Of a stretch of 34,157 nucleotides of DNA, positions 3,416-18,344 are shown piece by piece. Under the pieces are notes generated by a model, which saw only the letters and a program-made list of their open reading frames with translations, did no database searches and was not told the origin of the DNA. The translations under genes and the position numbers were made by a program. Numbering within the stretch: position 1 is the first letter of the stretch; each line of letters starts with the position of its first letter. Location of the stretch: assembly GCA_017853605.1 (NCBI GenBank), contig JAFMJG010000012.1:1-34157 (forward strand). Reading direction: 5' to 3'. Source of the stretch: a bacterium (GTDB lineage Bacteria > Bdellovibrionota_C > UBA2361 > OMII01).

Positions 3416-3823
3416 TTACGGCTGAATGTTGTCGTCGTTGAAGAACGTCGACATGAATGAGCGGAGGATGAACGCGCCAACAGCGATGATCATCAAGCCC
3501 ATTGCAGCCTTGTACTGGCCGAACGCTGCGCTAAAGATCGCGCCGATTCCAGCAGCCGCCATAACGAGGGCGCCCAAGCTTCCTTCGAGGTAGGTGAGCA
3601 CTGCGTTCACGGCGTTGGCGATCTTCAGGTCATTGTAGGTTGTGAGAACCTTTCCTCCGTTGCCCGACTGAGCGATAGCATCGATGGAGAGGCTCAGGGC
3701 GATCATCCCCAAACCAGCAACAAACAGCACAACACGGGCCTGCTTCTCAGTCGGAGCCGTAAAGGCCGCCGAGACGCGCTGGCACAGCGTGGTAATCTTT
3801 TCCTTTATGAGTAGCTTCTTCAT
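3416..3823 (-). CDS. VirB2/TraA-like T4SS pilin precursor
   Basis: This is a 135-residue prepilin. A long leader of about 51 residues ends in a hydrophobic segment (VVLFVAGLGMIALSL) and a likely signal-peptidase site, DAIA before QSG. The mature subunit would be about 84 residues with two hydrophobic helices (about 72-95 and 104-123) joined by a short polar loop containing FGQYK. This is the topology of VirB2/TraA/TrbC pilins. The leader length is close to that of F-pilin TraA (about 51). The start ATG is preceded by AGAGGTTACGT. The gene is set apart from the T4SS operon by 254 bases, has a probable promoter of its own and is closed by a strong terminator, which fits the need for many subunits. 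It has no strict signature motif, so the call rests on topology and context. Confidence 0.75.
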   Translation of the reverse strand: MKKLLIKEKITTLCQRVSAAFTAPTEKQARVVLFVAGLGMIALSLSIDAIAQSGNGGKVLTTYNDLKIANAVNAVLTYLEGSLGALVMAAAGIGAIFSAAFGQYKAAMGLMIIAVGAFILRSFMSTFFNDDNIQP

Positions 3824-3906
3824 ACGTAACCTCTTTAAAGTTTAATGGACACTAACTTGCTTCTTCCGTGTAACGGCGCGACTAGCACGCCCCAGTTTCA
3901 TAGAAG

Positions 3907-3935
3907 GTTATAGCAGAATCGATCCCGTATGTTGC
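3907..3935 (-). promoter_or_regulatory. Candidate extended -10 promoter for the pilin gene
   Basis: On the minus strand TGC-TATAAC (hexamer at 3912-3907) forms an extended -10 element. A weak -35 (GCAACA, 3935-3930; three of six consensus matches) lies 17 nt upstream. This would give a leader of about 75 nt before the pilin ATG. It was found by eye and is only suggestive. Confidence 0.35.
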
Positions 3936-4077
3936 ATAAGCGACACCCCAAAGCGCAGAAATACTGCCAATCATGACAGCGACTTACAGCTTTAATTACG
4001 CAGGGCGCTTGCAACACTGGGTGGCACGGGGTGAGAGGGGGCGCTGGCATGAAAGAACGCGGGCGAGGTTGCCGCGG

Positions 4078-4620
4078 CTAGCCCTCGGCCCCGGCGGCGA
4101 GCCCGGGGAGAAGACGTTCGGGATTGAGGGCTTTGCCAGTTTTTCGAAGCTCAAAGTGCAGGTGTGGCCCAGTTGAAAGCCCTGAGCTTCCCACGGCTCC
4201 TATCACCTCTCCGGCCCGGACAACGGCGCCTGGCTGGACCGCTATGCGGGAACAGTGGCCGTAGTGGCTCGTAAGCCCATCAGGATGCTCGATGACGATG
4301 AGATTGCCGTATCCGCCGTGTGGATCGGCAAACATCACGCGGCCCGCCGCGATCGCCCTGATTGGGGCGCCCTGAGGGGCTGCGAGATCAATGCCCTCGT
4401 GGTGGTGGCGCACTCGCCGGATTGGATGCTTGCGGCTGCCGAAAACGCCTGAAAGCCGCGGGCCCATAACCGGGTACACGAGAGCGTCTTGCGGCCCGGG
4501 GGACACTCGTTCAGCTGGAGAGAGGTCGTCCGACTTCGCCCACGATACAGTTGGGCTTGCCACCACGGAGATCAGCAGCGCCAGAAGCATCACTGCAGGG
4601 GCCTTTCGCACTACGGTCAT
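4078..4620 (-). CDS. M23 (LytM-type) peptidoglycan endopeptidase of the T4SS cluster
   Basis: This is a 180-residue exported metallopeptidase. A signal peptide spans residues about 1-28 (hydrophobic core VMLLALLISVV, cleavage near SWA-KS). The M23 domain fills the rest, with zinc and catalytic motifs HEGID (H74, D78), SHYGH (119-122) and HLH (153-155). All the canonical residues are present, so it should be active, cutting peptide cross-links in the periplasm. The start ATG at 4620 overlaps the stop of the upstream SH3 gene as ATGA; the frame stays open to 4803, but the longer version would put an unlikely Arg-rich stretch before the signal peptide. The overlap implies translational coupling. 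T4SS clusters often carry a lytic transglycosylase; here an endopeptidase may open the wall for assembly of the apparatus. Confidence 0.88.
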   Translation of the reverse strand: MTVVRKAPAVMLLALLISVVASPTVSWAKSDDLSPAERVSPGPQDALVYPVMGPRLSGVFGSRKHPIRRVRHHHEGIDLAAPQGAPIRAIAAGRVMFADPHGGYGNLIVIEHPDGLTSHYGHCSRIAVQPGAVVRAGEVIGAVGSSGLSTGPHLHFELRKTGKALNPERLLPGLAAGAEG

Positions 4621-5663
4621 TTTGCGGACCCTCCGCCTGCAATCTTCTGGAGGCGCCGAAAGGCCTCCTCCTCGACGTTGCTCGAGTATCCCTTGACGCG
4701 GACGGAGCTTCCATCGTTCATCGAAGAGGCTCCGTCGCCGAAGGTGATGAGGCTGGAGTGAATCCATGCGCGCTCTCCGTTCGGCGCAAACACCCGGTAC
4801 CACTCTCCCTGCAGCTTTTCAACCGACAGGCGGGAGCCACGGCGAACGGTCATGATCGCGGAATTGTTCTTGCCCGGACCTAACCGTAGTTCCGCCTTGT
4901 CAACGGAAACGGTCGCGACTGTAAAGTCTGCTTCGGGGCTCGGAAGCTTAACGTCTGCCATCTTTCGCTCGGTCGCGGCCGGCTCCGCGGCCCGTTGCGG
5001 CTCGGGGCTCGTTAGCGCGTCTGTCGGCGGCACCGGAACATTGAGGCGGCTGAGGCTGGCTCGAGTCCTTGCATCTACCATCGTGGAGAGTCGGCGCGTT
5101 TCGGTCTCAGCAACCGTAAGCTGCGTCTTTGTCTCGTGCAGCTCCTGCTCAAGGGCAGAGTTGCGGTTCCGCAAGGAATCCACCTGCCTCTTTAGGGACT
5201 CATTCTCTCGCGCCAGGAGCGCGGCCTTAATCTTCTCATCCTCGCCGCTGGAAGGGGACGTAGTAGCCGCCTTAATCTTTTGGGGCGCAGTAGCAGGGCT
5301 CGTCGTCACTGCACCTCTCTTTGCGGCCACCGGCGCGGGCGGAATTTTTGCTTTTGTGGGTGCCAAAGGGGCTTTTGGCGCAACCACTGGCTGGACCTTG
5401 CCTGGCGCAGTGATAACAGCCGGCACGGCGATCGCCTGCTCAAGGGGAGCTGAGGCGCCCTCGGCAGAGAGGTTCTCCATTATCGCTAACTCGGCGTTAA
5501 TAAGGGTTTGCTGAAAGTCGTCCCGGGGATCAGAACTCGACATAGGCTCACCGTACGAGACTGAGCACATCCAGAACGATCCGAGCAAGGCTGCCATCGG
5601 CAAAATGGCCCAACGCGCCACTCCCGCCCTGCTCGAATTTGATAATGTGAGATGGGACCCCAT
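4617..5663 (-). CDS. Exported coiled-coil protein with bacterial SH3 domain
   Basis: This is a 348-residue protein. An N-terminal hydrophobic segment (about 17-37, ending VSYGEP) is a signal peptide or anchor. A Pro/Ala/Lys-rich linker (about 75-140) follows, then a strong coiled coil (about 141-200, ENESLKRQVDSLRNRNSALE). A bacterial SH3 domain (about 249-306) ends with the typical AWIHSSL strand. SH3b domains commonly bind peptidoglycan or peptide partners. The start ATG has AGAGG five bases upstream. The gene is translationally coupled to the M23 peptidase by an ATGA overlap, so the pair probably works together, with this protein placing the peptidase on the wall near the T4SS. It is not a recognised Tra protein. 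Confidence 0.72.
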   Translation of the reverse strand: MGSHLTLSNSSRAGVARWAILPMAALLGSFWMCSVSYGEPMSSSDPRDDFQQTLINAELAIMENLSAEGASAPLEQAIAVPAVITAPGKVQPVVAPKAPLAPTKAKIPPAPVAAKRGAVTTSPATAPQKIKAATTSPSSGEDEKIKAALLARENESLKRQVDSLRNRNSALEQELHETKTQLTVAETETRRLSTMVDARTRASLSRLNVPVPPTDALTSPEPQRAAEPAATERKMADVKLPSPEADFTVATVSVDKAELRLGPGKNNSAIMTVRRGSRLSVEKLQGEWYRVFAPNGERAWIHSSLITFGDGASSMNDGSSVRVKGYSSNVEEEAFRRLQKIAGGGSAK

Positions 5664-5780
5664 AGAAACCTCTGGTTAACCAACCACAAGTCCGGGCTAG
5701 CCGTTGAAATGCTTCACACTTTCCGAGAAATCTGCCTAGGTTTAGGCGAAATCCCCGGCCACGGTAAGAAAAACGCGTAG

Positions 5781-6164
5781 TTAATCGAGGCCGAGGGAGC
5801 GTCGAACATCGCCCAAAGGGCGGGGAGAGGCAGCGCCGCTTCCGCTGGAAGGGGGGGGCTGAGGAGACTCCAGCCCCTTGCCCGCCACCAGGTCATCGAG
5901 AGTAGGGTCCGCCCCCGGGGCCTTTTTCGGCGCCACCGCGAGCCGCTTCTGCTGCTCCGCCATCATCGCCTTGAGGCTGTTCGCCAGGGGATCCTCCTGC
6001 TCGCCGGCGGAGAGGGTCTGCCGTGAGGAAGCCCCCGGCGAAGGGGTATCGGTTTGGGCGCCGATACGGAGGACAAACGCCAGGAAGGCGAGCACCAGCA
6101 GGGCTCCGATCTGGACCTTGCTGTAAAACGGCGCGAGGAAGTTTTTGAAGCTAATGAGGCTCAT
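5781..6164 (-). CDS. Small single-TM protein of the T4SS operon, function unknown
   Basis: This is a 127-residue protein I do not recognise. A short cytosolic N-terminus precedes one membrane helix (about 17-35, LLVLAFLAFVLRIG). The remainder is polar and low in complexity: Ser/Thr/Pro-rich, then a helical patch (KAMMAEQQKRL), then a Pro/Gly/Ser tail ending in a conserved-looking LGDVRRSLGLD. It starts 6 bases after the stop of the upstream lipoprotein gene and is clearly part of the same transcript. Position and topology would suit a periplasmic accessory protein of the channel. No catalytic motif is seen. Confidence 0.6.
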   Translation of the reverse strand: MSLISFKNFLAPFYSKVQIGALLVLAFLAFVLRIGAQTDTPSPGASSRQTLSAGEQEDPLANSLKAMMAEQQKRLAVAPKKAPGADPTLDDLVAGKGLESPQPPPSSGSGAASPRPLGDVRRSLGLD

Positions 6165-6170
6165 GAGCCG

Positions 6171-6467
6171 CTACTCTTTGTTCTTCGGGCGCTTGTAGTA
6201 TTGCCATCGACCCTGCCTAATCTCAACTACCTCTTGATGACCGGGCCGGTAGTAATGCCCCTCAGGGTCCAGCCCTGGCGGGACATCAACTACGTCTACC
6301 ATCGGCTCCTCCCAGATATACTCCACCACACCAGGCACATTACGCACCTCAAACTCCACAGGCCCTGGGTCTGGGGGAGGGGGTGCAGGCTCGCTGCTAC
6401 ATCCAAACATGACGGGGCATAGGGCAAGCAGCGCAGCGACACGGGCAAAACGGGTAAGGTCACTCAT
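6171..6467 (-). CDS. Small lipoprotein with TraV-like C-terminal motif
   Basis: This is a 98-residue lipoprotein. The signal peptide ends in PVMFGC, giving lipid attachment at Cys23; a run of Pro follows. The C-terminal half contains VPPGLDPEG followed by RPGH and GRW. This arrangement (VP..L...G....P(A/G)H, then a hydrophobic strand and a Trp) is also present in the TraV-like lipoprotein encoded upstream in the same operon. The ATG has AGGAG eight bases before it and lies 11 bases after the TraC stop, so the gene is co-transcribed with the ATPase gene. It is probably an outer-membrane lipoprotein of the T4SS core complex or its periphery. The exact family is unknown. Confidence 0.65.
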   Translation of the reverse strand: MSDLTRFARVAALLALCPVMFGCSSEPAPPPPDPGPVEFEVRNVPGVVEYIWEEPMVDVVDVPPGLDPEGHYYRPGHQEVVEIRQGRWQYYKRPKNKE

Positions 6468-6478
6468 GGTAGTCTCTC

Positions 6479-9220
6479 CTAAACACCGGAATCTCTAAAG
6501 CCCGAATCCATTATGGAGCTGATAGCGCCAGATACGCTGCCGGCGTCATCCGGCTGGAATCCTGCACCCCCCATCATGCGCTCCTGGAGGTCTTTTGCCC
6601 CGTAGGGCGCGATCATGACCACCTCTTCCAGGGCGCGGCTGAAGTCGTTGTTATGCCTGGTCAGGGAGTCGCTGAACAGCTGGTTGTCATCCCCGTTGTT
6701 TGTGCTCACCCAGTAGAAGGCCGGCTCAACTGGCAAAACAAGGGCTCCCTCCCCGATGTCCGACAGGAGGTAGAACTGAGACTCAAGCCCCTTTACGGTC
6801 CGCAGCCGCATGATCACGTCCGCCTGCTGTGGAGTCAGGTTGAAGGCCTGGGCCGTCAAGTGAAACTTGTTCGGATCTTGCCGCAGGAAGATCTTATGGG
6901 CGCTATTCTGGACGATCGCCTGGCCCCCCGAGCCGACGTAGAAGTCCTCTCCTGACTGAGAGGCTGCTATCACGATTCCTTTGCGCTTTCGGTAGAGGCG
7001 GAACGCAGTCTCGATTGTATTCGCCTGAGTTTTCCCGATGAGCTCGTGGGCCTCGTCAAAGACCAGGATCTTCCTGGTGTCGAGCTCGCGCGGATCGTTC
7101 ATGACAGTGTCTGCCCAGACCATAGAGATCTTCAGGAACACCCGCTGAAGGTCCGGATTCCTGCTGAGCGCCTTGAGGTCAAATACGATGAAGCGCTCCT
7201 TGAGCTTGAGGGATCCTGGCCGGTCAAAGAACCTCGCGTAGGTTCCTTCGCCGTAGTAGTCGGCGATGAGCAGCGCAATTCGCTGGCGGCGCCTGGCCGC
7301 GTCTTCAGTCTCGTCCACCCGCCGGGGCGCGCGCAGTACCGACACGCAGTCACTTAGTATGAACTCCCGGCGCATCGGCCCGCTGCGGTAAATCCGGTGG
7401 GCCTCAATAAGGGACTCCGCAACACTGCCGCGCTCAAGGCGGTCTGGAATGTTACTCCCATCGGTCGCCATGTCACAGATGACATCCGCGCACATGTCAA
7501 CGAGGTCCTTGTAGTCGTCGTTTCGTGAGTCAGGGGTAAGCTCGCCAAGCCGGGCGAGGAAGTTCATGGCCGGGGCCTTCGAGGGGGTGGCCTCATAGAC
7601 GCGGCCGCCGAACAGCCGGGCGATCTTCTCAAATCCGCATGGCTGCCCTGTCATGCCCTTGTCGAAGATGAACGTGATGGGGTTTCTCTCCACAATCCGC
7701 CCATCTGACAGCGTCGCGTAGTGGCCCCGGTTCAGCATGGTAATAAGGAAGCACATCAAGTAGCTCTTTCCGGCTCCTGACACTCCGCTGATGAGGACGT
7801 TAGGGGCGATGTTTGAGTCGTAGAGGTCAAAGCCGATAAGCTCCCGGTTCCAGAGGCTGGGAAGCAGGATCTGGGCACCTGAACTGCCGCGCCAGTTGCC
7901 CCACAGGGGAAACATCCTCACAGCGCGGGATGACTGCATTACTGTCGTCCAGCCGGCGCCATCGGTCATCGGATCATACGCGCATGGCATGCTGTTGATG
8001 AGCACCGCCATGTCCGAGATCTCATGCACCATGCCCCGGGCCCCGTTTAGCTGCGGGAACGTCGCCACTGCCTCAGAGGTCGCGCGCACCGCCTCGTCAT
8101 CGGTCTGGCAGACAAACGTCTGATGGACGCCGACCCGCACGATCTGCTCGCGAGAGTCATAGAGCTCCTGCCGCGCGTTTCGAATGGCCTGAATCTGGTG
8201 CAGGACCTTCTGGTTTGATCGCCCGCCCCAGGCCCTTTCGCGCATCCCGAGCGTGCTGTCGAGACGGTCAAGCCGCTCGAGCTGCTTTTCCTTCGGATCC
8301 TTTGAGAATGTTACGCTGATGATGTTCTCGTACGGTGCCGACTGCAGCGGGGCGATCATCAGCGGCATGCACGACTTTGGCGGCTTCACCATTGATACCG
8401 AGCGGAATACCCGGCCATCCTTGCGGATAATGCCGTCCTTGGGGTGATCCACGTGAGTCTCAGAGATCTGGTTTGCCAGCAGGTCGTCGGGATCGTACTC
8501 GGGAACGGGAATGGCGGTTGTGCGGCCCCTTCGGTGCTTGCCTGGCTTTACGCTCCGGCGGTTTAGGATAGGGTAGAGGAGGTTAATAAGGGACTGGCCA
8601 TCAACCCGTCGGGGAGCAAAGCCGAGGTCTGCAAGCTTGGCGGATGAGCCGTCCATCAGCCCCTTGAACTTGTTTGCAAAGCCCATGAATTCCGCCGTTC
8701 TCTGGTCGGCGTTGCGGCCGACAGCGCCGTGCATGAGGACCTTGAGGGTGCGCGCTATCTGTTGCAGCAGCCCCTTCCCTTGCCAGGGCGGGTCGTACCG
8801 GAACGCAATGAAGAGCCTCAGCCGCCGGGGACGCCGCTGCAGGACACGGCTCTGGCTAGCCAGGCGGATGGAGCGTATCCAGCGCCGAGTCATCCAGCCC
8901 GCTGGGCCGGAGAGTGGGTATCGGGAGATGCACTCGCGCAGCAGATCTTCGACATCAAATGTCGTTATCCATGATACCTGCGCAGACAGGGTGTGCTCCA
9001 GGGAGTCTAGGAGCTCCTGAACTCTCTCTGTAAGCTGGAACGCGTCTGCGTCCGAGACCTTAGTAATCCACTTGGGCTGAAGCTCCCACATTGACCAAAG
9101 GGACGCGTCGGTGTGAATGAAGATTTCGTTCTGCTCATCCCACTTGGCGAATGGCAGGAGCTTGTTGAACACCTGCTCATCCTGAAACAACCTTTGGCGG
9201 GTCAACCTATTGATGCTCAT
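6479..9220 (-). CDS. traC: TraC/VirB4-family T4SS ATPase
   Basis: This is a large cytoplasmic AAA-type ATPase that powers pilus assembly and substrate transfer. The N-terminal half (about 1-450) is the TraC/VirB4 membrane-associating region. The C-terminal half is a RecA-like motor with Walker A GVSGAGKS (near residue 480) and Walker B ILVFDEAHE (near residue 720), followed by a sensor-like AASQSGEDF. The length (about 913) is close to that of F TraC (about 875). The start ATG at 9220 is chosen because GTGAG lies four bases before it. A GTG at 9229, overlapping the upstream stop as GTGA, is possible but has its Shine-Dalgarno too close. Both motor motifs are intact. In gene order it follows TraB, TraV and the DotD-like gene, as TraC does in F-type operons. 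Confidence 0.93.
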   Translation of the reverse strand: MSINRLTRQRLFQDEQVFNKLLPFAKWDEQNEIFIHTDASLWSMWELQPKWITKVSDADAFQLTERVQELLDSLEHTLSAQVSWITTFDVEDLLRECISRYPLSGPAGWMTRRWIRSIRLASQSRVLQRRPRRLRLFIAFRYDPPWQGKGLLQQIARTLKVLMHGAVGRNADQRTAEFMGFANKFKGLMDGSSAKLADLGFAPRRVDGQSLINLLYPILNRRSVKPGKHRRGRTTAIPVPEYDPDDLLANQISETHVDHPKDGIIRKDGRVFRSVSMVKPPKSCMPLMIAPLQSAPYENIISVTFSKDPKEKQLERLDRLDSTLGMRERAWGGRSNQKVLHQIQAIRNARQELYDSREQIVRVGVHQTFVCQTDDEAVRATSEAVATFPQLNGARGMVHEISDMAVLINSMPCAYDPMTDGAGWTTVMQSSRAVRMFPLWGNWRGSSGAQILLPSLWNRELIGFDLYDSNIAPNVLISGVSGAGKSYLMCFLITMLNRGHYATLSDGRIVERNPITFIFDKGMTGQPCGFEKIARLFGGRVYEATPSKAPAMNFLARLGELTPDSRNDDYKDLVDMCADVICDMATDGSNIPDRLERGSVAESLIEAHRIYRSGPMRREFILSDCVSVLRAPRRVDETEDAARRRQRIALLIADYYGEGTYARFFDRPGSLKLKERFIVFDLKALSRNPDLQRVFLKISMVWADTVMNDPRELDTRKILVFDEAHELIGKTQANTIETAFRLYRKRKGIVIAASQSGEDFYVGSGGQAIVQNSAHKIFLRQDPNKFHLTAQAFNLTPQQADVIMRLRTVKGLESQFYLLSDIGEGALVLPVEPAFYWVSTNNGDDNQLFSDSLTRHNNDFSRALEEVVMIAPYGAKDLQERMMGGAGFQPDDAGSVSGAISSIMDSGFRDSGV

Positions 9221-9225
9221 GGAAC

Positions 9226-9735
9226 TCACTCTCTAAAAAGTCTTGGCTGCTCCCCAGTCGCTGCCAGAAACCTAACTTCTTTGCCCTCATGGTCCACTAC
9301 CACCTGAATGCCAGCCTTGCGCTCGATGAGCCGCGCGAGCTCGTCGATCGTTCCAAGGTTTCGTATCGTAATCTTTTGCGATGCTATCGATGGCTCCGTG
9401 TAGCTTTGGTAGCGCGATGTGGCGGCGAGAACACGGGCCGCCTCCTCAAGAGAGACATTCGCAAGGTTCAGCTGAAAGACGGGGCGGATAGGCGGGCCCG
9501 CCTTTGCTTCGCTTGAGTCGGCGCTGCCAGGCCTTTCCCTGTTGGGCAAAACCTCAGGGGGCTGCACCCACCTAGTCCTGGAGTACACGGGCTCTGCGCC
9601 AACCCTCCTCACCGATGGCAGAAACAGGGTGCGGTTGTGCGAGGCCTTCGGGTCATACGGCTTGACATCCGATGAGCACCCGGCCGTTGCGACCACCAGC
9701 AATGCACCCAGGAGGGGACGGCAGAGCCTGATCAC
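9226..9735 (-). CDS. DotD-like lipoprotein with N0/secretin-type domain
   Basis: This is a 169-residue lipoprotein with a lipobox TAGC, lipidated at Cys20. A disordered linker reaches about residue 84. Residues about 86-157 then show the strand-helix-strand pattern of an N0/STN domain: FQLNLANVSLEEA, then KITIRNLGTIDELARL, then GKEVRFL. Short N0-domain lipoproteins are known in Dot/Icm and IncI T4SSs as DotD/TraH. The pattern of a first helix, PS...I.I strand, second helix with a late AG, and V..R.L strand fits what I recall of DotD. The GTG start at 9735 overlaps the stop of the TraV-like gene as GTGA, and GGAGG lies seven bases upstream, so this start is well supported. F-type operons have no such gene at this place. 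The fold call is moderate; orthology to DotD is inferred. Confidence 0.62.
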   Translation of the reverse strand: MIRLCRPLLGALLVVATAGCSSDVKPYDPKASHNRTLFLPSVRRVGAEPVYSRTRWVQPPEVLPNRERPGSADSSEAKAGPPIRPVFQLNLANVSLEEAARVLAATSRYQSYTEPSIASQKITIRNLGTIDELARLIERKAGIQVVVDHEGKEVRFLAATGEQPRLFRE

Positions 9736-10175
9736 CGAATGTCCTCCGGATTAACGTAGCCAACACTTGAGGAGGAGCCTTGTCCATTGTTGAGCTGGGC
9801 CTCAAGCTCAAAAGCGTCAGTGACGGCCCAAGAATCCTTCTTCACCTTAAGGTAGTAGTAGTGGGCAGGGACGAGGTCCCCGTGAGAGTTCAAGTGGTCC
9901 GGAACCCACATCAGGCGAACGACCGCCGGCTGCATCACAGGGTTGACCGGCTGGGGAGCAAGCGCTCTCTGGTACGTCCCCATCTGCTCCAGCGCCTGCC
10001 GCGCGGAATTTGCGCTTCCCCCATCAGAATTGAGGGCAGAGTCGTTCTTCTCGCCTAGGTAAGCCTCCGGCGGTGGCGACTCGTAGAACGGGTTGAAGAT
10101 ATTCCCGATGCTGCCGCAGCCAGAGAGCAGCGCCGCAGCCGCGAAAGCAAGGGTATATGTGATGCGCCTCTTCAT
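9732..10175 (-). CDS. traV: TraV-like outer-membrane lipoprotein
   Basis: This is a 147-residue lipoprotein with lipobox LLSGC (Cys20). A low-complexity stretch follows, then a C-terminal segment VVRLMWVPDH with SHGD, PAH and a Trp (about 85-117). This resembles the C-terminal motif of TraV proteins of conjugative elements (a WVxP-type strand, then xGDL, then a strand ending in Trp). It sits directly after TraB and before TraC with one gene between, which is the F-type order. TraV/VirB7 lipoproteins anchor the TraK/VirB9-TraB/VirB10 core to the outer membrane. The start ATG at 10175 has a modest GGGATAGAG upstream. The assignment rests on lipobox, position and motif. Confidence 0.65.
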   Translation of the reverse strand: MKRRITYTLAFAAAALLSGCGSIGNIFNPFYESPPPEAYLGEKNDSALNSDGGSANSARQALEQMGTYQRALAPQPVNPVMQPAVVRLMWVPDHLNSHGDLVPAHYYYLKVKKDSWAVTDAFELEAQLNNGQGSSSSVGYVNPEDIR

Positions 10176-10193
10176 ACTCTATCCCAACATCCC

Positions 10194-11357
10194 CTAGTCA
10201 AGCGACGTGTACACCAGCGATGGATTCTCCTCGTCAAGAGCCTCAAGAAGGTCTGGTATCGGCAGAGACTGGGAGAAGACCGCAGTGGCCTCCCGATTCG
10301 ACAGCACCTGGACGACAGGAACGAGCTGCGAAACGCGGTCCCGGATCAGCTGCTGCCACTCGCCGGCGGCGGAAGAGAGTGCCACACCCCCGGCAAAGGC
10401 CGGAATCTGGCTGGCGTCAACGTTGCTGCTTCCGGTGCCGTTGCTGTACAGCGTGTACTGCTGGTTTGCGGCGGCTATGCCCTGTCCCAAGCCCGCCAAG
10501 GCGCCCGCCATGCCTGCGCCGCCGATCGCCTTGCCGATAGGGTCAATCAGCACGCCGGACAGGCCGCGAATTCCATCCTCGCCGACGATCCATCCATCAA
10601 TGCCGAATTCCTTGCGGCGCCCATTCGGAAGCCGGAGGCTGAGGCGAGTAAGACGAAAGAGCACTCGAGAGTCGGTGAGGGAGCCTTGCGCTGCCGCAAT
10701 CAGCCGGGCCTCCCCAAGAGGAATAGTGTTGCCGTCGGGCCCCATTACGGGCCCTAGGAGCTTGAGGACAACTGGATATGGCGTCCCGTCCGTCGGCGCA
10801 TTGACGCCAGCGAGGAGCTTCACCCGCACTGAGTCCCCAGGCATGATCGCCGCGAGCTTTGGCTTCGATGGTGGTGGAGGGGGAGCTACCGCGATCGGAT
10901 CCCCGCCGTTTATAGAGTCGAGCTCGTCGTCCGCAACTGGCACGATGTCCGGTCCAGTGATGTCCCCAACATCCTTCGGCGTCAAGTTCGCTGTCTGGCT
11001 TGCAGGGCCAGCCTGAATCTCGGCAAGGCGCTCAAGAACCTTCTTGAAGATCTCTGCAGTTGTTGCCTCCAGGTCCTGCATCATCTTGCGCTGGTTCTCC
11101 TGCTCTGACTGCAGGGTATTAAGCTGCTGGGCTTGCGTCTTTAGCTGGGTGTCAAAGCGGGCAACGAGGTCCACCCAGCGCTCATCTACGTTGCCAGAGC
11201 CGGAGGATGTCTCTGTCAGGCGCGGGGCGCGAGCCCGGCGCGGCGTATTCTCCGAAAAGGCCAGGAACACAACCGCGATTAGGGCGAGCCCAGCGATGAC
11301 CTGCGTCTTGCGGTCGCTTTTGAGCTTTAGTCCGAGGTCCTTGAGAAACTGCGACAT
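10194..11357 (-). CDS. traB: TraB/VirB10-family T4SS core protein
   Basis: This 387-residue protein spans the envelope. It has a short cytosolic N-terminus, one membrane helix (about 17-34), a coiled coil (about 65-118), a Pro-rich hinge with PPPPPSK (near 165), and a C-terminal VirB10/TrbI domain (about 175-380). That domain has the typical IMPGDSVRVKLL opening, GPDGNTIPLGEARLIA and the helical hairpin region GKAIGGAGMAGAL that forms the outer-membrane pore in VirB10 proteins. The ATG has AGGA seven bases upstream. It lies 15 bases after traK and 18 bases before the traV-like gene. Length and domain order agree with F TraB, though this one is slightly shorter. Confidence 0.92.
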   Translation of the reverse strand: MSQFLKDLGLKLKSDRKTQVIAGLALIAVVFLAFSENTPRRARAPRLTETSSGSGNVDERWVDLVARFDTQLKTQAQQLNTLQSEQENQRKMMQDLEATTAEIFKKVLERLAEIQAGPASQTANLTPKDVGDITGPDIVPVADDELDSINGGDPIAVAPPPPPSKPKLAAIMPGDSVRVKLLAGVNAPTDGTPYPVVLKLLGPVMGPDGNTIPLGEARLIAAAQGSLTDSRVLFRLTRLSLRLPNGRRKEFGIDGWIVGEDGIRGLSGVLIDPIGKAIGGAGMAGALAGLGQGIAAANQQYTLYSNGTGSSNVDASQIPAFAGGVALSSAAGEWQQLIRDRVSQLVPVVQVLSNREATAVFSQSLPIPDLLEALDEENPSLVYTSLD

Positions 11358-11372
11358 AATACGTCCTGTTCG

Positions 11373-12167: not shown

Positions 12168-12207
12168 ACTGAAACCTCGAAACGTTCTCATGCCTGCCTC
12201 GTGCCTG

Positions 12208-12897
12208 CTACTCCATCTGCCCTGGGCGCTCTCCGCGCGTATTCGGCGTGAAAATCACGTTGGTAATTACGATACCGTAGGGATTGACTGGATTGCGCGG
12301 GATGGTGGTCATCTCGATCCGGTAGCGGCTTGAGACGCTGGGGATGGCGGCGCCAGCGATCACTTTCCACCGCTCTCCGGAGATAGACACGATGACCCTG
12401 TTGCCCTCTCGATCCACCCGGGTAAGCAGGGGATCAACGAAGAATACCTGTGTCCTGAGCGTCGTCTCGATTGCCGGCAGCTCCGAATTCATGTTCTCGT
12501 CATTAAACTTGGTTAGGAGCGGCTCCTTAAGCATAGCCCTGGCGACCTCAAACTGCTTGCGGGCGGTGTTTGGCTGGTACGTCGCGACCAGGTTGACATA
12601 GTCATTCGCCACGTTGACGTACTCGGTGTCAGGTATGTCCTGCGCAGCATAGTGGCCCGGCATGGGCTTGGACGGGACATTGAGCGTTATCTCACGGGTG
12701 AACCACATGGCGAGCGCGAAGATAATTGCGACAAGAGTGGTGGGAAGCTGCAGGAGCGAGAGGGCCCGCCACATGAGGGCCTGGTCCTTGTAGTTCTCCC
12801 AAAGACGGATCGTGTCGTTGCTGCTGCGCGCAGCAGTCAGCTGGGTGTCAGCAACCCGCTCCTTGACTCCCTGCGTCGCCTTGTCGAGCTTGCTCAT
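12208..12897 (-). CDS. traE: TraE/VirB8-like inner-membrane T4SS protein
   Basis: This is a 229-residue bitopic protein. The N-terminal cytosolic tail is followed by one membrane helix (about 46-66, LSLLQLPTTLVAIIFALAM) and a periplasmic domain of about 160 residues with the NTF2-like alpha/beta pattern of VirB8/TraE proteins. The C-terminal motif RYRIEMTTIPRNPVNPYGIVI is close to what TraE proteins show before their last strand. It is slightly longer than F TraE (188). The start ATG has AGAGGTTTAC upstream. It lies between traL and traK, in F order. It should link the inner-membrane complex to the core. Confidence 0.88.
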   Translation of the reverse strand: MSKLDKATQGVKERVADTQLTAARSSNDTIRLWENYKDQALMWRALSLLQLPTTLVAIIFALAMWFTREITLNVPSKPMPGHYAAQDIPDTEYVNVANDYVNLVATYQPNTARKQFEVARAMLKEPLLTKFNDENMNSELPAIETTLRTQVFFVDPLLTRVDREGNRVIVSISGERWKVIAGAAIPSVSSRYRIEMTTIPRNPVNPYGIVITNVIFTPNTRGERPGQME

Positions 12898-12921
12898 GTA
12901 AACCTCTTGCCCAAACCGTCT

Positions 12922-13314
12922 CTACCGCTCATCAGACTCGCGACTCTTGCTTATGACCTCATCGAGACCGAGCTGCACGAAGAGACAGCTCTCCCCAAGC
13001 TTCCGGAGAGGGGCACCGCTCCATACCGGCTGAAGCCTGGCAGGTGACGGGATGCCGATCGGCTCGAATCCGCACGACGCCATGACCAGGTTCCGCACCC
13101 CACGCTCCTCATCCGGAAAACGCTTGCGCAGCGTCGCCAGGAGCAGCGTAGTTCCTATCCAAACCAGGACGAGGAAGGGCATGTAATTCGCAGGCTTCTC
13201 AAAAGCCGTTCCTACGAGAAGCGCCATCATCAGGCCTGCCATCCATTCCATGGCTTTGCAGCCGGCAAAGGTCCAGTCCTCGTTTAATCCTGGTATGACG
13301 TCGCCGTTATCCAT
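12922..13314 (-). CDS. traL: TraL/VirB3-like inner-membrane T4SS protein
   Basis: This is a 130-residue protein with two close membrane helices (about 21-38 and 43-61), then a basic and polar C-terminal tail. This is the topology of TraL/VirB3, which associates with the TraC/VirB4 ATPase. It sits directly upstream of traE, as traL does in F-type operons. The tail is longer than in F TraL (91 residues). The ATG has AGAGG twelve bases away, a long spacing, so translation may be weak or coupled. The call is mostly from topology and order. Confidence 0.72.
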   Translation of the reverse strand: MDNGDVIPGLNEDWTFAGCKAMEWMAGLMMALLVGTAFEKPANYMPFLVLVWIGTTLLLATLRKRFPDEERGVRNLVMASCGFEPIGIPSPARLQPVWSGAPLRKLGESCLFVQLGLDEVISKSRESDER

Positions 13315-13349
13315 AGGTCGAATAAGCCTCTTTTAGTAATCAAGCCCCC

Positions 13350-13709
13350 TTACTTCTTTGCTTCAGGCAAAAGTCTAGGGTCGGCAGAAAACCTAATCCC
13401 CCCTCGGGTGGCCTTGGGCTGCGGGTCGAGCACACGCTCCAGATCCTCCGCTCGATCAATCAAGGTGTTGCGCCACTTCACTGGGTCTAACAGCTCGTCA
13501 GGACGGGCGATTTTCCGAGCCGCATCGAACTCATTAAGCGCCGTGATGAGCAGGGCACGGGCTCTCGCATAGTGAGCTACCGCCTCAACCGTGGTCTCCT
13601 GGTCGGCTTGGCCTAGCAAAACCCCGCGAGACTCGCCATAAGAGGTTGGAACGGCAGAGAGTAATGAGAGGCATGCCAGGGCTGCGCATGCGGTGATTCT
13701 TGTAAGCAT
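13350..13709 (-). CDS. Small secreted helical protein heading the T4SS operon
   Basis: This is a 119-residue protein of unknown family. The signal peptide (MLTRITACAALACLSLLS, cleavage near YGES) is followed by a helical, charged mature part (VAHYARARALLITALNEFDAARKI and WRNTLIDRAEDLERVL). The frame is open to 13841, but the start is set at 13709 because TTGAGGTTTCAG precedes that ATG and the signal peptide begins there. It is the first gene of the minus-strand T4SS operon, 36 bases before traL. In F that place belongs to the pilin gene, but this product has no pilin-like helix pair. It may be a periplasmic accessory protein. Confidence 0.65.
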   Translation of the reverse strand: MLTRITACAALACLSLLSAVPTSYGESRGVLLGQADQETTVEAVAHYARARALLITALNEFDAARKIARPDELLDPVKWRNTLIDRAEDLERVLDPQPKATRGGIRFSADPRLLPEAKK

Positions 13710-14092
13710 CTGAAACCTCAATATTTTTAATCCCTTGAGGGGTAACCTTTCCCGCCTATCTCTCCTATCGCCACTTTTCCCCGGGTAACTGGAGGAAAGC
13801 CAGCTATTCTGTAAATCCCGAAAGAGACCGAAGTACAACATATAGAGAAGTGGGGGACCGTATTCACCCGCTTCGGCGCTATCCGCCTTCTTTGGGGGTA
13901 TGGGGAATTGCGGCTAATCTGTTACTTAAGGGGGTTAAGCGGTTGGAAGCGAGCATCCATGGGATTTTCTTGTCCGGAGCAGCGAGCCGCCGAACGGTAT
14001 AGTCCGATCCGTCGGGGCCTGGATGCCATTCTCGTAACAAGGCCTCCGTGGCCGTTTGTTTTTGCTAAGCCGGTTTTTCGTAGAGGAATGCA
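13710..14092 (+). other. Divergent intergenic region between the two T4SS transcription units
   Basis: These 383 bases separate the minus-strand T4SS operon from the plus-strand coupling-protein operon, so promoters for both must lie here or nearby. Reading both strands, I found no convincing -35/-10 pair. TATAGT at about 13998 (plus) is an isolated -10-like hexamer. No gene with a ribosome site was found; short frames here lack any recognisable content. Confidence 0.5.
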
Positions 14093-16150
14093 GTGGTAGA
14101 GGGATTGCCAGCGCCGGACAGCAAGGATCTGGATCTCCTGAGAAATAACCAGCGGAGAAACTATTCCCGCCTGGTCATCAAGGCTGTTGTTGGCATATTT
14201 GGCGCCCTCCTTGGAATCTTGCTGACGGTCTACCTCGTTCGTCAGGTCAAAAACGATGAGGCCTCGCCGGCGTACGTGCAGGACCTGCTCTCCGCAAGCG
14301 GGTTTAATTGGGAAGAGGATGTCCCGGGCCAGATAGCTGCCTACCGTGAGTGGCTGGGGTCTCATGGCACCGCCATGGAGGCTTCGATCTTCGACGATAC
14401 TTCGCTCCTGCTGGTGAAGAGCATGGTCGCTAGCGTCGGCAATGAGCCGAGCCGCTCCGATCTCGGGATCTTCCGGCAGCTCTACCTGTCTCTCCACATC
14501 GGGCTAATACGGGTGGTGTTCCTTGTGCTCGCCTCCCTTCGGGCCTGCATCGTCCTGGTGCTGGGCGCGGTTATTTTCGGCCTGCGCTCCTATCGGCCGC
14601 ACGAGGGGGATGACGCCCTCGGCCAGATGGGAAACGGCAGGCTCTTTTACTCGGGTGTTCGGGCGGGCCTTGAGAAGATCACTCCAGAGGGGGCGCCTGA
14701 CGTTCAGGTCAGGGGGCTCGCGTGCCCCCAGTTCTCGCCGCAGGGGGAGACTCGGGCATCCCAGATCTGGAAGGTGCTTGGAGAGTATGGGGCGCAGAAC
14801 GCCACAAACGAGGCGCTCGCGGCGATCGTCGTAAGGAATGCGGGGATATCTTCCTACGTAGCGACGCCGGAGGACGAAGGCCGGCTCTCAAAGGCTTTTG
14901 TGGCGACAGCGCTCGGGGCGCACACTGCCGATCTCCTTGCTGCTGCGCTTTCGCTTCACGCCAGGTACGCGCAGGGCGAGGCAGATGGGCCCATTGAAGC
15001 GCATGCCGAAGAGGTTGGAGGCGCTCCGCTCTCTTCTTGGGAGTATGCGCAAGCCGTGCAGTTGGCGATGCATAGGGTTCTTTCGCCGGACTTGCGGCGC
15101 GAGCTCGGCGAGCTCTCTCCAGCAGAGATAGCAACTGCAGTTCTCTCCTTCGAGTGCGGCAAGGTGCTCGCCCACTCATTTGAGGGAGGGCGCTGGATCC
15201 GGCGTTCGCAATTCCCGCAACTGAGCGCCCGAGCGGTTCTTCACTCTATCGTTGCCTACCCTCAGGACTACGGCTTCGATGAGCGCCGCCGGATCCGCCA
15301 GGCGCTCATCTACTCGTCTCGCTCCAGCTCGTTCGCCCCGGTGCGCATGCCGCTCGGGCTTGACAGCGTCACATGGGCCCTGCGGCAATGGATGGAGATC
15401 CTCTTGGCGAGCCCACACCAGCTGCGGCCTGTTGCTGATGAAGTGGAGCTTGTTGGCCTGGTGCGGGCAGCCCATACGACATGGTGCGCCGAGCTGCTTG
15501 ACGGCTCGGCCCTGCTGTCCCCTGATACAGCCGGGCAGAGCTTCGCAACCGGGGCAGGGCTGCTCCTGGTTCCGCTTCGGGGCGTCATCACTGCCCTGCG
15601 GCGCAGCATCAGCCCTTCCGACATCAGAAGAATTGAGTCGCTGCTGGTGGCGGTGACTGTGAGCCAGAGGCAGGCGGCTGCTGAAGCGGCAAAGCGTGAT
15701 GGAGAGGCTGCAGACACGGTCTCGTTTGAGCGCATCCTCCCGCCGCTTCGGGATGCAGAGGTCACATCACTGGCGCTCCTGCACGGAGTTGCGGTGGAGG
15801 ATCTCAAGGACTGGTCCGCTCTCCGGATAGTGCTGACCTCATACGGGTGGCTGGCCCGACGGGTGGGGGACTACACGGTGCCAGAGAGCTCGGTGATCTT
15901 TGCGGTGTTCAAGTCGAGGGACCCGCTGCCAGGCGCCAACATGCTCGGCCTCGTTGGAAAATCGGGCTTGGTGCCGTTTCGGGGGGCAAAATTCGAGGCT
16001 ACCTGGGGAGGCTCTTGGGCCGCGCATTTTGCGCTCGCCGACAAGGCGACTATGGCGGAGACGACAGAAGATTTTGAGAAGTTAATGAAGGGCATCGAAG
16101 AGAAAGCGGAAGAGGAGAGCCCCGGCGGGGGGTCTCCGGTTACTGCGTAG
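14093..16150 (+). CDS. Large two-TM T4SS partner of the coupling ATPase, possibly DotM-like by position
   Basis: This is a 685-residue protein. It has a short cytosolic start, membrane helix 1 (about 28-49), a periplasmic segment of about 85 residues, membrane helix 2 (about 136-166), and a cytosolic domain of about 500 residues rich in helices. It ends in an acidic, Gly-rich tail. The GTG start has AGAGG six bases upstream. It is followed after 10 bases by the coupling ATPase gene. In Dot/Icm and IncI systems the coupling ATPase (DotL/TrbC) pairs with a membrane protein, DotM/TrbA, encoded next to it. This gene has that position and a similar topology but is much longer than DotM (about 380). 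I see no sequence motif that proves homology. Its job is probably to hold the coupling ATPase or recruit substrates. Confidence 0.6.
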   Translation: MVEGLPAPDSKDLDLLRNNQRRNYSRLVIKAVVGIFGALLGILLTVYLVRQVKNDEASPAYVQDLLSASGFNWEEDVPGQIAAYREWLGSHGTAMEASIFDDTSLLLVKSMVASVGNEPSRSDLGIFRQLYLSLHIGLIRVVFLVLASLRACIVLVLGAVIFGLRSYRPHEGDDALGQMGNGRLFYSGVRAGLEKITPEGAPDVQVRGLACPQFSPQGETRASQIWKVLGEYGAQNATNEALAAIVVRNAGISSYVATPEDEGRLSKAFVATALGAHTADLLAAALSLHARYAQGEADGPIEAHAEEVGGAPLSSWEYAQAVQLAMHRVLSPDLRRELGELSPAEIATAVLSFECGKVLAHSFEGGRWIRRSQFPQLSARAVLHSIVAYPQDYGFDERRRIRQALIYSSRSSSFAPVRMPLGLDSVTWALRQWMEILLASPHQLRPVADEVELVGLVRAAHTTWCAELLDGSALLSPDTAGQSFATGAGLLLVPLRGVITALRRSISPSDIRRIESLLVAVTVSQRQAAAEAAKRDGEAADTVSFERILPPLRDAEVTSLALLHGVAVEDLKDWSALRIVLTSYGWLARRVGDYTVPESSVIFAVFKSRDPLPGANMLGLVGKSGLVPFRGAKFEATWGGSWAAHFALADKATMAETTEDFEKLMKGIEEKAEEESPGGGSPVTA

Positions 16151-16160
16151 GGAGAGAGAC

Positions 16161-18344
16161 ATGGCACGGACCTATAAGCGGACTGACTACTCGGCTATCC
16201 GTGATGAGCGGATACGGCAGTCCCTGCTAACCTCCGGGCTCGCTTCGCTTGGAACATTTGGGGCGGTGCTCTCGCCGCTTGCTGGCGCCCTTGATCCGAT
16301 GGTGCTCTTTGGCATGGGGCTCATACCCGCTTGCGCTTTTGGGCGCAGCGCCCTTGAGTGGGGCAGGCAGCAGGCCCTGGAGCTCGAGCGTGCAAGGGAG
16401 TCCCAAATGCGGGGAGGGAAGGACGTGCTCGGCATGCCGCCGATGCGTGAAGCTTTTGGCAGGGCGGTTGAGACAGCGCGGCTCAAAAACAAGAAGATGC
16501 TGGACCGCTACCTGGTGGGCTTTGAGCTCGATTCCGGGGAGCCGCTGTGGGTTGATGATGATGAGATCTGCACGCACGGCGCTGTGTTCGCAAAGACGGG
16601 CGTCGGAAAAACACTGTGGCTAGAGTCCCTGATTTTTCAGCAGATGGCGCGTGGGCGGGCGAGCGGCTGCACCTTTATCGATGCCAAGCGCGACTCTGCA
16701 ACGCTCGCCCACATCATCCTCATGGCGATGATAACGGGACGAATTGAGGATCTCATTGTGGTCGACCCATTTGAGAGCGTCCATGCGTACAATTTTGTGA
16801 TGACCAACCAGCGGGCAGACGTCAAGGCCCGCAAGGTGCTGCGCGCTGGGCTGCCCCCGACCTCAGACCAGAGCACGACGAAGCACTACGATCGGCTTGC
16901 TGCAGACTCCATATACCGCATGGTGCGGGCGATGGAGAGCTTTGGGCTGGCGTGGTCTATCCGTGACATCGCGGTCGCGTTGTCAGCCTTCCAGCTTGCC
17001 TATCCGCACCTGCGGAACATGCTCAACAAGATCGGCGCCCGGCAGGCTATGGTTGAGTTGGGGCACCTTGCGTCCAGCTACCGCAGCGTCAAGGGGGTCC
17101 TCGACACGGCGCGCATTACCGACAACCTTCGGGGAATCGCTTCTGAGCTGCACGCAATCTCGGGCAGCGAGGCGGGCGAAATTTTTTGCACGAAGCACAC
17201 GGACCTTGTCCTCACGGACGCCATCCTTCGGGGCAAGATCATTTACTTTATGCTTCCGCGGCTTGAAGAGGCAGAGAGCGCCGCCCGAATGGTCAAGGTG
17301 TTCCGAGAAGACCTTGAGGTCTCAATCGGGGAGATAACTTCCTCCAGGATCCACAATTTGGAGGACCCTCACCTAGTAATTATTGACGAGGGCTCCTCCA
17401 CATTCGGCCCCACTTGGGCGAACCTGTTTGAGCTGGCGCGGCGAGGGCGGTTTGCGCTGCTCTTTGGTGCCCAGTCGACTGGAGGCCTCACGGATGCCGC
17501 GATGGGCCTCAGCGAGGCCTTCTATGAGCGGGTGATGGCTAACGTCAACCTCAAGGTCATGATGAGAATCGGGGACAATCGCACGGCCTCGGACATGACG
17601 GAGTGGTTTGGCAAGATAACCTCCACAAAGAAGTCAGTAGGGGCGGGAGTCACGACGGGCATGTCGAGCGCGCTCCTGAAGGGGACTCTTGACCTGAATG
17701 CGCGCCGCTCTGGAGGCGAGTCGCAGAGCGTTAGCTACCAGGAAGCCGAGGAGGACCTCGTCAGCGCTGAGGAGCTCAAGCACGAGATGTCGGCCGAGAA
17801 GGGGTTGGCATGGTTTGATCTCGGCAACGGCAAAATTGTCAAGGGTAGGTCGTTTTGGTTCAACGCAAACCTGCCCGATACGTGGGAGGGCCGCGAGTTT
17901 ATTGTTCATCCGGAAAAGCTCGAGGTGGATGAGATTGGGCTTGCGGATTGGGTTGATGAGCAGATCTTGTCGCAGGAACAGGAGGAGACTTCACAGAAGT
18001 TCGCGCCGAAGCCCCGTAGCCAGCAGGAGCCAACGCTGCCGGAGAGGAGGCCGGGGGCGTCCGGCACCGCCTCCTCTCAGACTCCATCTGATGCGCCTGT
18101 TTCATCATCCTTCAAGCTGGGACCGATGCCGAGGGGAGGCATGAGGCCCCGTGGGTCGGTGACCTCCATAATGAAGCCAGCGGCACCCGCTAGCGAGGCG
18201 CCGGCGGCTGCAACTGGAGCACCACCGGCGAAGGGTTCTTCCCAGCAGCAAGGAGGTGCTTCGGGGGATGCAAAGGCAAAGGGCGGGGAGCCTTCAAAGA
18301 GCGGATGGGGACCCAAAACAGGACCCCTTAAGCTGCGAAAATAA
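16161..18344 (+). CDS. TraD/VirD4/DotL-family type IV coupling ATPase
   Basis: This is a 727-residue protein that should bring substrates to the T4SS channel. Two hydrophobic stretches (about 27-62) anchor it in the inner membrane. The motor has Walker A KTGVGKT (about 145-151), a following FIDAKRD, and Walker B LVIIDEG (about 404-410). A downstream FGAQSTGG is typical of VirD4-like proteins. The region ANVNLKVMMRIGD and the final GNGKIVKGRSFWF resemble the end of the ATPase domain in DotL/TraD. After about residue 610 the tail is disordered, rich in Pro, Ala, Gly and Ser; such tails often bind adaptors. The ATG has GGGAG upstream. No relaxase gene is next to it. Motifs alone cannot separate TraD from DotL. 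Confidence 0.9.
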   Translation: MARTYKRTDYSAIRDERIRQSLLTSGLASLGTFGAVLSPLAGALDPMVLFGMGLIPACAFGRSALEWGRQQALELERARESQMRGGKDVLGMPPMREAFGRAVETARLKNKKMLDRYLVGFELDSGEPLWVDDDEICTHGAVFAKTGVGKTLWLESLIFQQMARGRASGCTFIDAKRDSATLAHIILMAMITGRIEDLIVVDPFESVHAYNFVMTNQRADVKARKVLRAGLPPTSDQSTTKHYDRLAADSIYRMVRAMESFGLAWSIRDIAVALSAFQLAYPHLRNMLNKIGARQAMVELGHLASSYRSVKGVLDTARITDNLRGIASELHAISGSEAGEIFCTKHTDLVLTDAILRGKIIYFMLPRLEEAESAARMVKVFREDLEVSIGEITSSRIHNLEDPHLVIIDEGSSTFGPTWANLFELARRGRFALLFGAQSTGGLTDAAMGLSEAFYERVMANVNLKVMMRIGDNRTASDMTEWFGKITSTKKSVGAGVTTGMSSALLKGTLDLNARRSGGESQSVSYQEAEEDLVSAEELKHEMSAEKGLAWFDLGNGKIVKGRSFWFNANLPDTWEGREFIVHPEKLEVDEIGLADWVDEQILSQEQEETSQKFAPKPRSQQEPTLPERRPGASGTASSQTPSDAPVSSSFKLGPMPRGGMRPRGSVTSIMKPAAPASEAPAAATGAPPAKGSSQQQGGASGDAKAKGGEPSKSGWGPKTGPLKLRK

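What the first reader, a model, noticed from the sequence alone, without database searches (positions are those of the whole stretch)
3416..18344. T4SS of mixed F-type and Dot/IncI-type character on a probable chromosome
The gene order TraL-TraE-TraK-TraB-TraV-like-TraC on the minus strand is that of F-type T4SSs. Between TraV-like and TraC sits a lipoprotein with an N0-like domain as in DotD. The divergent operon pairs a large two-TM protein with a coupling ATPase, as DotM-DotL are paired. Neither textbook type has both sets. It may be a separate T4SS lineage. The mixture is inferred from motifs and order, without alignment.
Basis: partly seen in the sequence, partly recalled or inferred. Interest (0 to 1): 0.75.

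Follow-up and report, generated by a model that had tools for sequence, protein, structure and literature searches.

The report
Class-wide chromosomal F-like secretion machine
An entire class of uncultured, mostly freshwater deltaproteobacteria-like bacteria carries one chromosomal copy of a DNA/protein-injection machine related to those of F-type plasmids, apparently inherited from parent to offspring and usually without the enzyme needed for plasmid transfer, so it has probably been turned to another job.

Summary
The gene order described is real. It is a single-copy T4SS core, flanked by housekeeping genes and conserved across a whole class: VirB4/TraC in 44 of 46 genomes, the 685-residue protein in 41, the coupling ATPase in 39. 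Identity falls with taxonomic distance and TraC is as conserved as its neighbour IspG, so inheritance looks vertical. The relaxase families tested hit only 6 of the 46 genomes and never this one. The proposed F plus Dot/IncI mixture is mostly not supported. The coupling ATPase falls outside the IncI/DotL clade (AU p = 0.018 against joining it) and sits with pSTY-type F-systems and IncP-2 plasmids. The 685-residue protein matches neither DotM nor TrbA by sequence, profile or fold. The 169-residue lipoprotein does have an N0 domain, but DotD, secretins, STN domains and Xanthomonas VirB7 share that fold. The closest known architecture is the T4SS of IncP-2 Pseudomonas megaplasmids, with the same order TraL-E-K-B-V-N0-VirB4-lipoprotein. 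A second conserved locus carries a TraF-like protein and TraG-like paralogs, often in tandem. Verdict: a new variant of the F-like kind, probably non-conjugative, with a class-specific coupling partner of unknown fold.

The parts
13350..13841 (-). p163: small exported periplasmic protein; real start probably 13709 (119 aa, as in orthologs)
   Evidence: conserved at this position in all complete class loci; best profile match is IncP-2 g116 at the same position, weak (P=19)
12922..13314 (-). TraL/VirB3-like small membrane protein
   Evidence: position, size, hydrophobic segment; no HMM hit; conserved
12208..12897 (-). TraE/VirB8-like
   Evidence: Pfam TraE 6.3e-6, over cut-off; duplicated in L049 and L050
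11373..12191 (-). TraK/VirB9-like outer-membrane core subunit
   Evidence: Pfam TraK_N/TraK_C 0.03, below cut-off; full-length profile match to IncP-2 TraK (P=81, E=1.2e-5)
10194..11357 (-). TraB/VirB10-like
   Evidence: Pfam TrbI 1e-15; profile vs F-type TraB E=4.7e-27
9732..10175 (-). TraV/VirB7-like lipoprotein
   Evidence: Pfam TraV 4.6e-5, over cut-off; profile vs F TraV P=94, IncP-2 TraV P=93
9226..9735 (-). 169-aa lipoprotein with C-terminal N0 domain (residues 87-157)
   Evidence: lipobox Cys20 conserved in >=90%; AF2 pLDDT ~97 over the domain; Foldseek N0/STN/DotD
6479..9229 (-). TraC/VirB4 ATPase
   Evidence: TIGR02746 TraC-F-type 4.6e-55 (below its equivalog cut-off), Pfam TraC_F_IV 5.7e-13 over cut-off; 44/46 class genomes
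6171..6467 (-). lp98: small lipoprotein
   Evidence: profile match to the IncP-2 lipoprotein right after VirB4 (P=95, E=2.7e-8); duplicated outside the order
5781..6164 (-). p127: small membrane-anchored protein
   Evidence: conserved position; no family
4617..5663 (-). exported coiled-coil + bacterial SH3 protein
   Evidence: Pfam SH3_3 2e-9; conserved position
4078..4620 (-). M23 peptidoglycan peptidase (the ORF opens at 4803, but orthologs of ~178 aa start near 4620)
   Evidence: Pfam Peptidase_M23 5e-36
3416..3823 (-). VirB2/TrbC-type pilin candidate
   Evidence: Pfam TrbC 0.015, below cut-off; hydrophobic segments; conserved position
14093..16150 (+). 685-aa class-specific membrane protein with ~500-residue cytoplasmic domain; partner gene of the coupling ATPase
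   Evidence: 41/46 class genomes; no family, no PDB sequence or fold match
16161..18344 (+). VirD4-type coupling ATPase
   Evidence: Pfam TraG-D_C 2e-6; NCBIfam SXT_TraD 1.2e-16; tree with pSTY-type and IncP-2 coupling proteins

Best explanation
This is the main locus of a chromosomal, class-wide, vertically inherited F-like type IV secretion system. Shown: it encodes the conserved core (VirB4, VirB7, VirB8 and VirB10 homologs by HMM, VirB9 by profile, VirB2 and VirB3 candidates by position and topology) plus a VirD4-type coupling ATPase. Also shown: most relatives carry a second locus with a thioredoxin-fold TraF-like protein, a conserved unknown and TraG_N-like membrane proteins, the likely VirB6 part. 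Inferred: TraK/TraB/TraV form the outer-membrane core. The N0 lipoprotein sits on the outer membrane and adds a peripheral ring, as the N0 domain of Xanthomonas VirB7 and DotD do. The M23 peptidase opens the wall. The 685-aa protein sits in the inner membrane next to the coupling ATPase as a class-specific substrate-receiving partner: DotM-like in role at most, not in ancestry. With no relaxase found in most carriers, the most likely substrate is protein delivered to neighbouring cells rather than a mobile element.
For: Class-wide presence and single copy. Identity tracks kinship: TraC 83-94% in genus, 64-74% in order, 55-64% in class. TraC is as conserved as IspG: 94/87/68 vs 88/83/69. Fixed gene order. 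Gene-by-gene match to the IncP-2 layout. Trees. Relaxase families: MOBP 5/46, MOBF 2/46, MOBH 0/46, none in the own genome. TraG_N-like proteins in 38/46, with a TraF-like Trx domain next to them.
Against: No substrate is identified and nothing is experimental. MOBC, MOBQ, MOBV and other relaxase families were not searched, so 'no relaxase' covers three families only. The link of locus 2 to locus 1 is by family resemblance, not by proven co-occurrence (Fisher p = 0.2). In the own genome only a contig-end fragment of the TraG-like gene was found. The second locus has no detectable TraH.
Confidence: 0.6

Rival explanations
1. One reading: F-type channel combined with a Dot/IncI coupling module (DotM-DotL) and DotD.
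For: Only solved-structure sequence match of the coupling ATPase is IcmO/DotL, 7.9e-12; NCBIfam IncI TrbC 8.8e-13; the N0 domain aligns with DotD among others.
Against: The coupling ATPase scores better against SXT_TraD (1.2e-16) and far better against pSTY/IncP-2 proteins (E=1.4e-30 and 3.6e-22 vs 2.4e-6 for R64 TrbC). Joining it to MPF_I is rejected (AU p=0.018). The 685-aa protein matches neither DotM in the PDB by sequence or fold nor R64 TrbA (P=0.6).
Confidence: 0.07
2. A DNA-secreting or DNA-exchange machine, like the gonococcal island (F-like ssDNA release), acting on chromosomal DNA.
For: F-like TraC, coupling ATPase and TraG-like proteins are kept; GGI-type systems are chromosomal F-like machines (PMC12857230).
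Against: GGI uses a relaxase; the three relaxase families tested are absent from most genomes, including this one.
Confidence: 0.2
3. A conjugative plasmid or ICE (or its remnant) that happened to be captured in the contig.
For: The nearest relatives outside the class are on conjugative plasmids; IncP-2-like plasmids transfer between strains (PMC7070040).
Against: Flanked by IspG, TlyA and CysN/C genes; same place next to IspG/kin755 in the genus and in L057; single copy and kinship-ordered identity in 44/46 genomes; no relaxase nearby.
Confidence: 0.05

Closest known systems
IncP-2 Pseudomonas megaplasmid T4SS (e.g. NZ_CP083367.1; pTTS12 relatives)
   Same: Same order: small periplasmic protein, TraL, TraE, TraK, TraB, TraV, N0-domain protein, VirB4, small lipoprotein; nearest TraK, TraE, N0 and lipoprotein profiles; coupling ATPase in the same wider clade.
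   Different: Plasmid-borne, in plasmids that transfer; its N0 protein lacks a lipobox; the coupling ATPase follows a helix-hairpin-helix/RecD-like gene, not a 685-aa membrane protein; pilin lies inside the operon; TraB and TraC of the window are closer to classical F-types. Some are typed MPF_I by MOB-suite.
MPF_F systems of the SXT/IncA and pSTY kind
   Same: TraL-E-K-B-V-C order; TraC and TraB similarity; pSTY has the coupling ATPase divergent from traL, as here, and it is the nearest characterised-plasmid coupling protein by profile apart from Leptolyngbya.
   Different: Have TraU and/or TraH, TraF, TraG, TraN and a relaxase, with a pilin and/or DsbC-like gene rather than an N0 lipoprotein between TraV and TraC.
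Dot/Icm and IncI (MPF_I)
   Same: A lipoprotein with N0 fold (DotD); a membrane protein gene beside the coupling ATPase gene.
   Different: Different coupling-protein clade; no DotM/TrbA match; VirB4 does not match R64 TraU (P=0.4).
Xanthomonas citri T4SS (VirB7 with N0)
   Same: N0 domain on an outer-membrane lipoprotein, proposed to form an extra ring (PMC3093366).
   Different: There VirB7 motif and N0 are one protein; here TraV and the N0 lipoprotein are two adjacent genes.
Patescibacteria chromosomal T4SS
   Same: Clade-wide, chromosomal, mostly relaxase-free T4SS (PMC12102498).
   Different: Related to MPF_FATA of monoderms, not F-like.

Membership tests
MPF_F (F-type) | TraC-type VirB4 | tested here: met
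   Pfam TraC_F_IV over cut-off; TIGR02746 4.6e-55 but below its equivalog cut-off
MPF_F (F-type) | TraL-E-K-B-V set in order | tested here: met
   E, B, V over Pfam cut-off; K below; L by position only; order conserved
MPF_F (F-type) | TraU | tested here: not met
   0 in own genome, 1 of 46 in class, that one a 26.6-bit match
MPF_F (F-type) | TraH | tested here: not met
   0 of 46; the protein at the TraH position in locus 2 has no profile similarity
MPF_F (F-type) | TraG N-terminal domain protein | tested here: met
   PF07916 in 21/46, 6 over cut-off; homologs in 38/46; own genome only a contig-end fragment
MPF_F (F-type) | TraF (C-terminal thioredoxin fold) | tested here: inconclusive
   profile P=78 vs F TraF over the Trx domain only
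MPF_F (F-type) | TraN, TraW, TrbC | not tested
   no genome-wide HMM search made; no match among locus 2 genes
MPF_I / Dot-Icm | coupling protein in DotL/TrbC clade | tested here: not met
   tree 99/97 MPF_I clade excludes it; AU p=0.018
MPF_I / Dot-Icm | DotM/TrbA partner | tested here: not met
   no PDB profile hit, no fold hit, P=0.6 vs R64 TrbA; caution: model pLDDT 76 from 13 sequences
MPF_I / Dot-Icm | DotD lipoprotein with N0 domain | tested here: inconclusive
   N0 fold shown, but no sequence match to R64 TraH (P=7), and the fold is shared by unrelated proteins
IncP-2-type T4SS | TraV - N0 protein - VirB4 - lipoprotein order with TraL-E-K-B upstream | tested here: met
IncP-2-type T4SS | VirB4 and coupling ATPase forming one clade with IncP-2 | tested here: inconclusive
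   neither shown nor rejected (class+IncP-2 coupling AU p=0.21; VirB4 unresolved)
Conjugative element | relaxase | tested here: not met
   own genome: no MOBP, MOBF, MOBH; other MOB families not searched

The most novel reading that the evidence does not exclude
A separate T4SS class, marked by an N0-domain protein encoded between TraV and VirB4, with two branches: a mobile one on IncP-2 plasmids and a domesticated one that has been a core trait of a whole bacterial class, the latter with a coupling-protein partner of new fold and expanded TraG-like arrays, delivering proteins into other cells.
Probability: 0.3. Interest if true: 0.75.

Novelty: new variant of a known kind. Interest (0 to 1): 0.56.

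Why it matters
T4SSs are mostly thought of as mobile. An F-like one kept as a single-copy core trait by nearly every member of an uncultured class, with a VirB4 as conserved as a housekeeping enzyme, implies an essential or lifestyle-defining role, as has been argued for Patescibacteria. It also shows that the little-studied IncP-2 megaplasmid transfer system, labelled MPF_I by typing software, has an F-like architecture with an N0 protein, and it offers a new type of coupling-ATPase partner to study.

Tried and rejected
DotM identity of the 685-aa protein: profile vs PDB, AF2 plus Foldseek, and profile vs R64 TrbA were all negative. DotD-specific assignment: only generic N0/STN similarity, no PDB sequence hit. 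Coupling ATPase in the Dot clade: rejected. A TraU/TraH-complete F system: rejected. Relatives of the N0 or 685-aa protein on plasmids by tblastn: none. TraH-like reading of the ~560-aa protein in locus 2, and identities for g280/g462/g262: no profile match. Pfam on ORFs downstream of the TraG-like genes found no clear effector domain. Significance of locus 1/locus 2 co-occurrence: not shown. VirB4 tree position relative to IncP-2 and MPF_I: unresolved because of long branches.

Full report
Observation. The minus-strand genes from 13314 to 6479 are TraL-, TraE-, TraK-, TraB- and TraV-like, then a 169-aa lipoprotein, then TraC. A divergent pair, a 685-aa membrane protein and a VirD4-type ATPase, runs from 14093 to 18344. 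Pfam supports TraC, TraB, TraE, TraV and the ATPase above curated cut-offs; TraK is weak and TraL has no hit. NCBIfam calls TraC F-type (4.6e-55, below its equivalog cut-off) and the ATPase SXT-TraD-like (1.2e-16), with IncI TrbC second (8.8e-13). The window is the whole of contig C200 of a 3.0 Mb MAG.

Conservation. The 685-aa protein is in 41 of 46 class genomes, the ATPase in 39 of 46 and at recognisable closeness in none of about 337 other genomes (the one other hit is 26% identical), and TraC in 44 of 46, in one copy apart from genes split between contigs. Identity follows kinship: TraC 83-94% within the genus, 64-74% in the order, 55-64% in the class. TraC is as conserved as the neighbouring IspG (94/87/68 against 88/83/69% in the three loci where both can be compared). 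Gene order is the same in named loci from the collection of titled genomes. NCBI titles call these organisms Deltaproteobacteria, Bdellovibrionales or Oligoflexia MAGs; the class itself is unnamed in the tools. All this points to vertical inheritance. I did not test it against a marker-gene tree.

The N0 lipoprotein. AF2 predicts residues 87-157 at pLDDT about 97. Foldseek finds PupR STN (9.3e-4), DotD in the Dot/Icm complex (2.2e-3), GspD N0, MxiD, PilQ and Xanthomonas VirB7. So the N0 fold is right, but DotD-specific ancestry is not shown. Xanthomonas VirB7 carries an N0 domain proposed to form an extra layer around the core complex (PMC3093366).

The 685-aa protein. No Pfam or NCBIfam family, no credible PDB sequence hit by profile and no fold hit (cytoplasmic part mostly pLDDT 80-97). 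Against R64 TrbA, the IncI counterpart of DotM, the profile probability is 0.6%. The predicted topology is one N-terminal and one second membrane helix, then about 500 cytoplasmic residues. Its partnership with the ATPase is inferred from the operon, which is conserved wherever both genes are visible.

Trees. In the coupling-protein tree the class (with one Leptolyngbya plasmid protein) joins pSTY-type MPF_F and IncP-2 proteins (94/95), then SXT TraD (81/84). IncI/Dot-type proteins form a separate clade (99/97). Forcing the class into MPF_I is rejected (AU p = 0.018), whereas class plus IncP-2 alone is not (p = 0.21). In the VirB4 tree the class is its own clade and deeper placement is unresolved, but profiles match F-type and IncP-2 VirB4 (P 98-99) and not R64 TraU (P 0.4).

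The closest architecture. IncP-2 Pseudomonas megaplasmids carry, in order, a 116-aa periplasmic protein, a pilin candidate, TraL, TraE, TraK, TraB, TraV, a 157-aa N0-domain protein, VirB4 and a lipoprotein. Profile comparison puts the syntenic IncP-2 protein first for TraK (P 81; F TraK 4), TraE (33; F 1.7), the post-VirB4 lipoprotein (95) and p163 (19). For the N0 protein the alignment covers exactly the N0 domain, but with modest probability (38). TraB and TraC are closer to classical F-types. Several of these single matches are weak; the collinearity is what carries the argument. PLSDB/MOB-suite types some of these plasmids MPF_I, and the pTTS12 paper mentions a further Dot/Icm-like T4SS in the host (PMC9537497); whether that is this cluster I did not check.

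Second locus. TraU and TraH are essentially absent from the class, but TraG_N-like proteins occur in 21/46 genomes by Pfam and 38/46 by homology. Their locus has a protein with a C-terminal thioredoxin fold resembling TraF (P 78 over that domain), a conserved-position ~560-aa protein with no match, and the TraG-like protein. Outside the order four or five TraG-like genes stand in tandem. In the own genome only a contig-end fragment is visible (C60). This is the likely home of the VirB6 function, but statistical co-occurrence with the main locus is not shown.

Function. MOBP relaxases are in 5/46, MOBF in 2/46 and MOBH in 0/46 genomes, none in this one; 6 of the 41 genomes with the ATPase or 685-aa protein have any. 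A conjugation role is therefore unlikely for most carriers. Protein delivery is the leading reading, by analogy with other relaxase-free chromosomal T4SSs such as that of Patescibacteria (PMC12102498); DNA release remains possible. No substrate is known.

Noticed in passing
L059:17872-19941 (Leptolyngbya boryana plasmid pLBX): A coupling ATPase 61% identical to the window's over 78% of its length, on a cyanobacterial plasmid with no other T4SS gene nearby; four Leptolyngbya records match. Looks like transfer between phyla or something unexplained.
   Followed up: partly
L121:3760-16560, L123:532-10051, L145:2736-16946: Four to five tandem TraG_N-like genes of 690-1130 aa in class members outside the order, reminiscent of multiple VirB6 paralogs in Rickettsiales (recalled from general knowledge).
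   Followed up: partly
L053:9072-11792 and L054:10001-12724: In one reduced family (f14; G029, G031) TraC stands alone among housekeeping genes; the 685-aa protein, the coupling ATPase and the TraG-like protein were not found there, yet TraC is intact at 55% identity.
   Followed up: no
L122:2095-6457, L138:4939-6985, L139:1112-3240, L137:1-2847: Variable soluble-looking ORFs directly downstream of the TraG-like gene in each genome, no clear Pfam domain; candidates for substrates or chaperones. One has a weak VopL C-terminal dimerisation match (E=0.006, below cut-off).
   Followed up: partly
window 1023-3290: 755-aa protein with weak kinase-like similarity (Bud32, E about 0.01), next to the pilin gene in the genus and in order members L042 and L057.
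   Followed up: no
window 28220-32131: 1303-aa ORF: N-terminal YbhB/YbcL-type domain, then a long Pro-Thr repeat tract and a C-terminal part with a weak FG-GAP match; it coincides with the strong GC/AT skew at 28-32 kb.
   Followed up: no
L049:4724-6249, L050:5189-6658; L045/L046/L047/L050/L055/L056: TraE is duplicated in L049 and L050, and the post-TraC lipoprotein is duplicated in many class members outside the order.
   Followed up: no
window 13922-14497 (-): 191-aa ORF antisense to the start of the 685-aa gene, without any family match; probably spurious.
   Followed up: no
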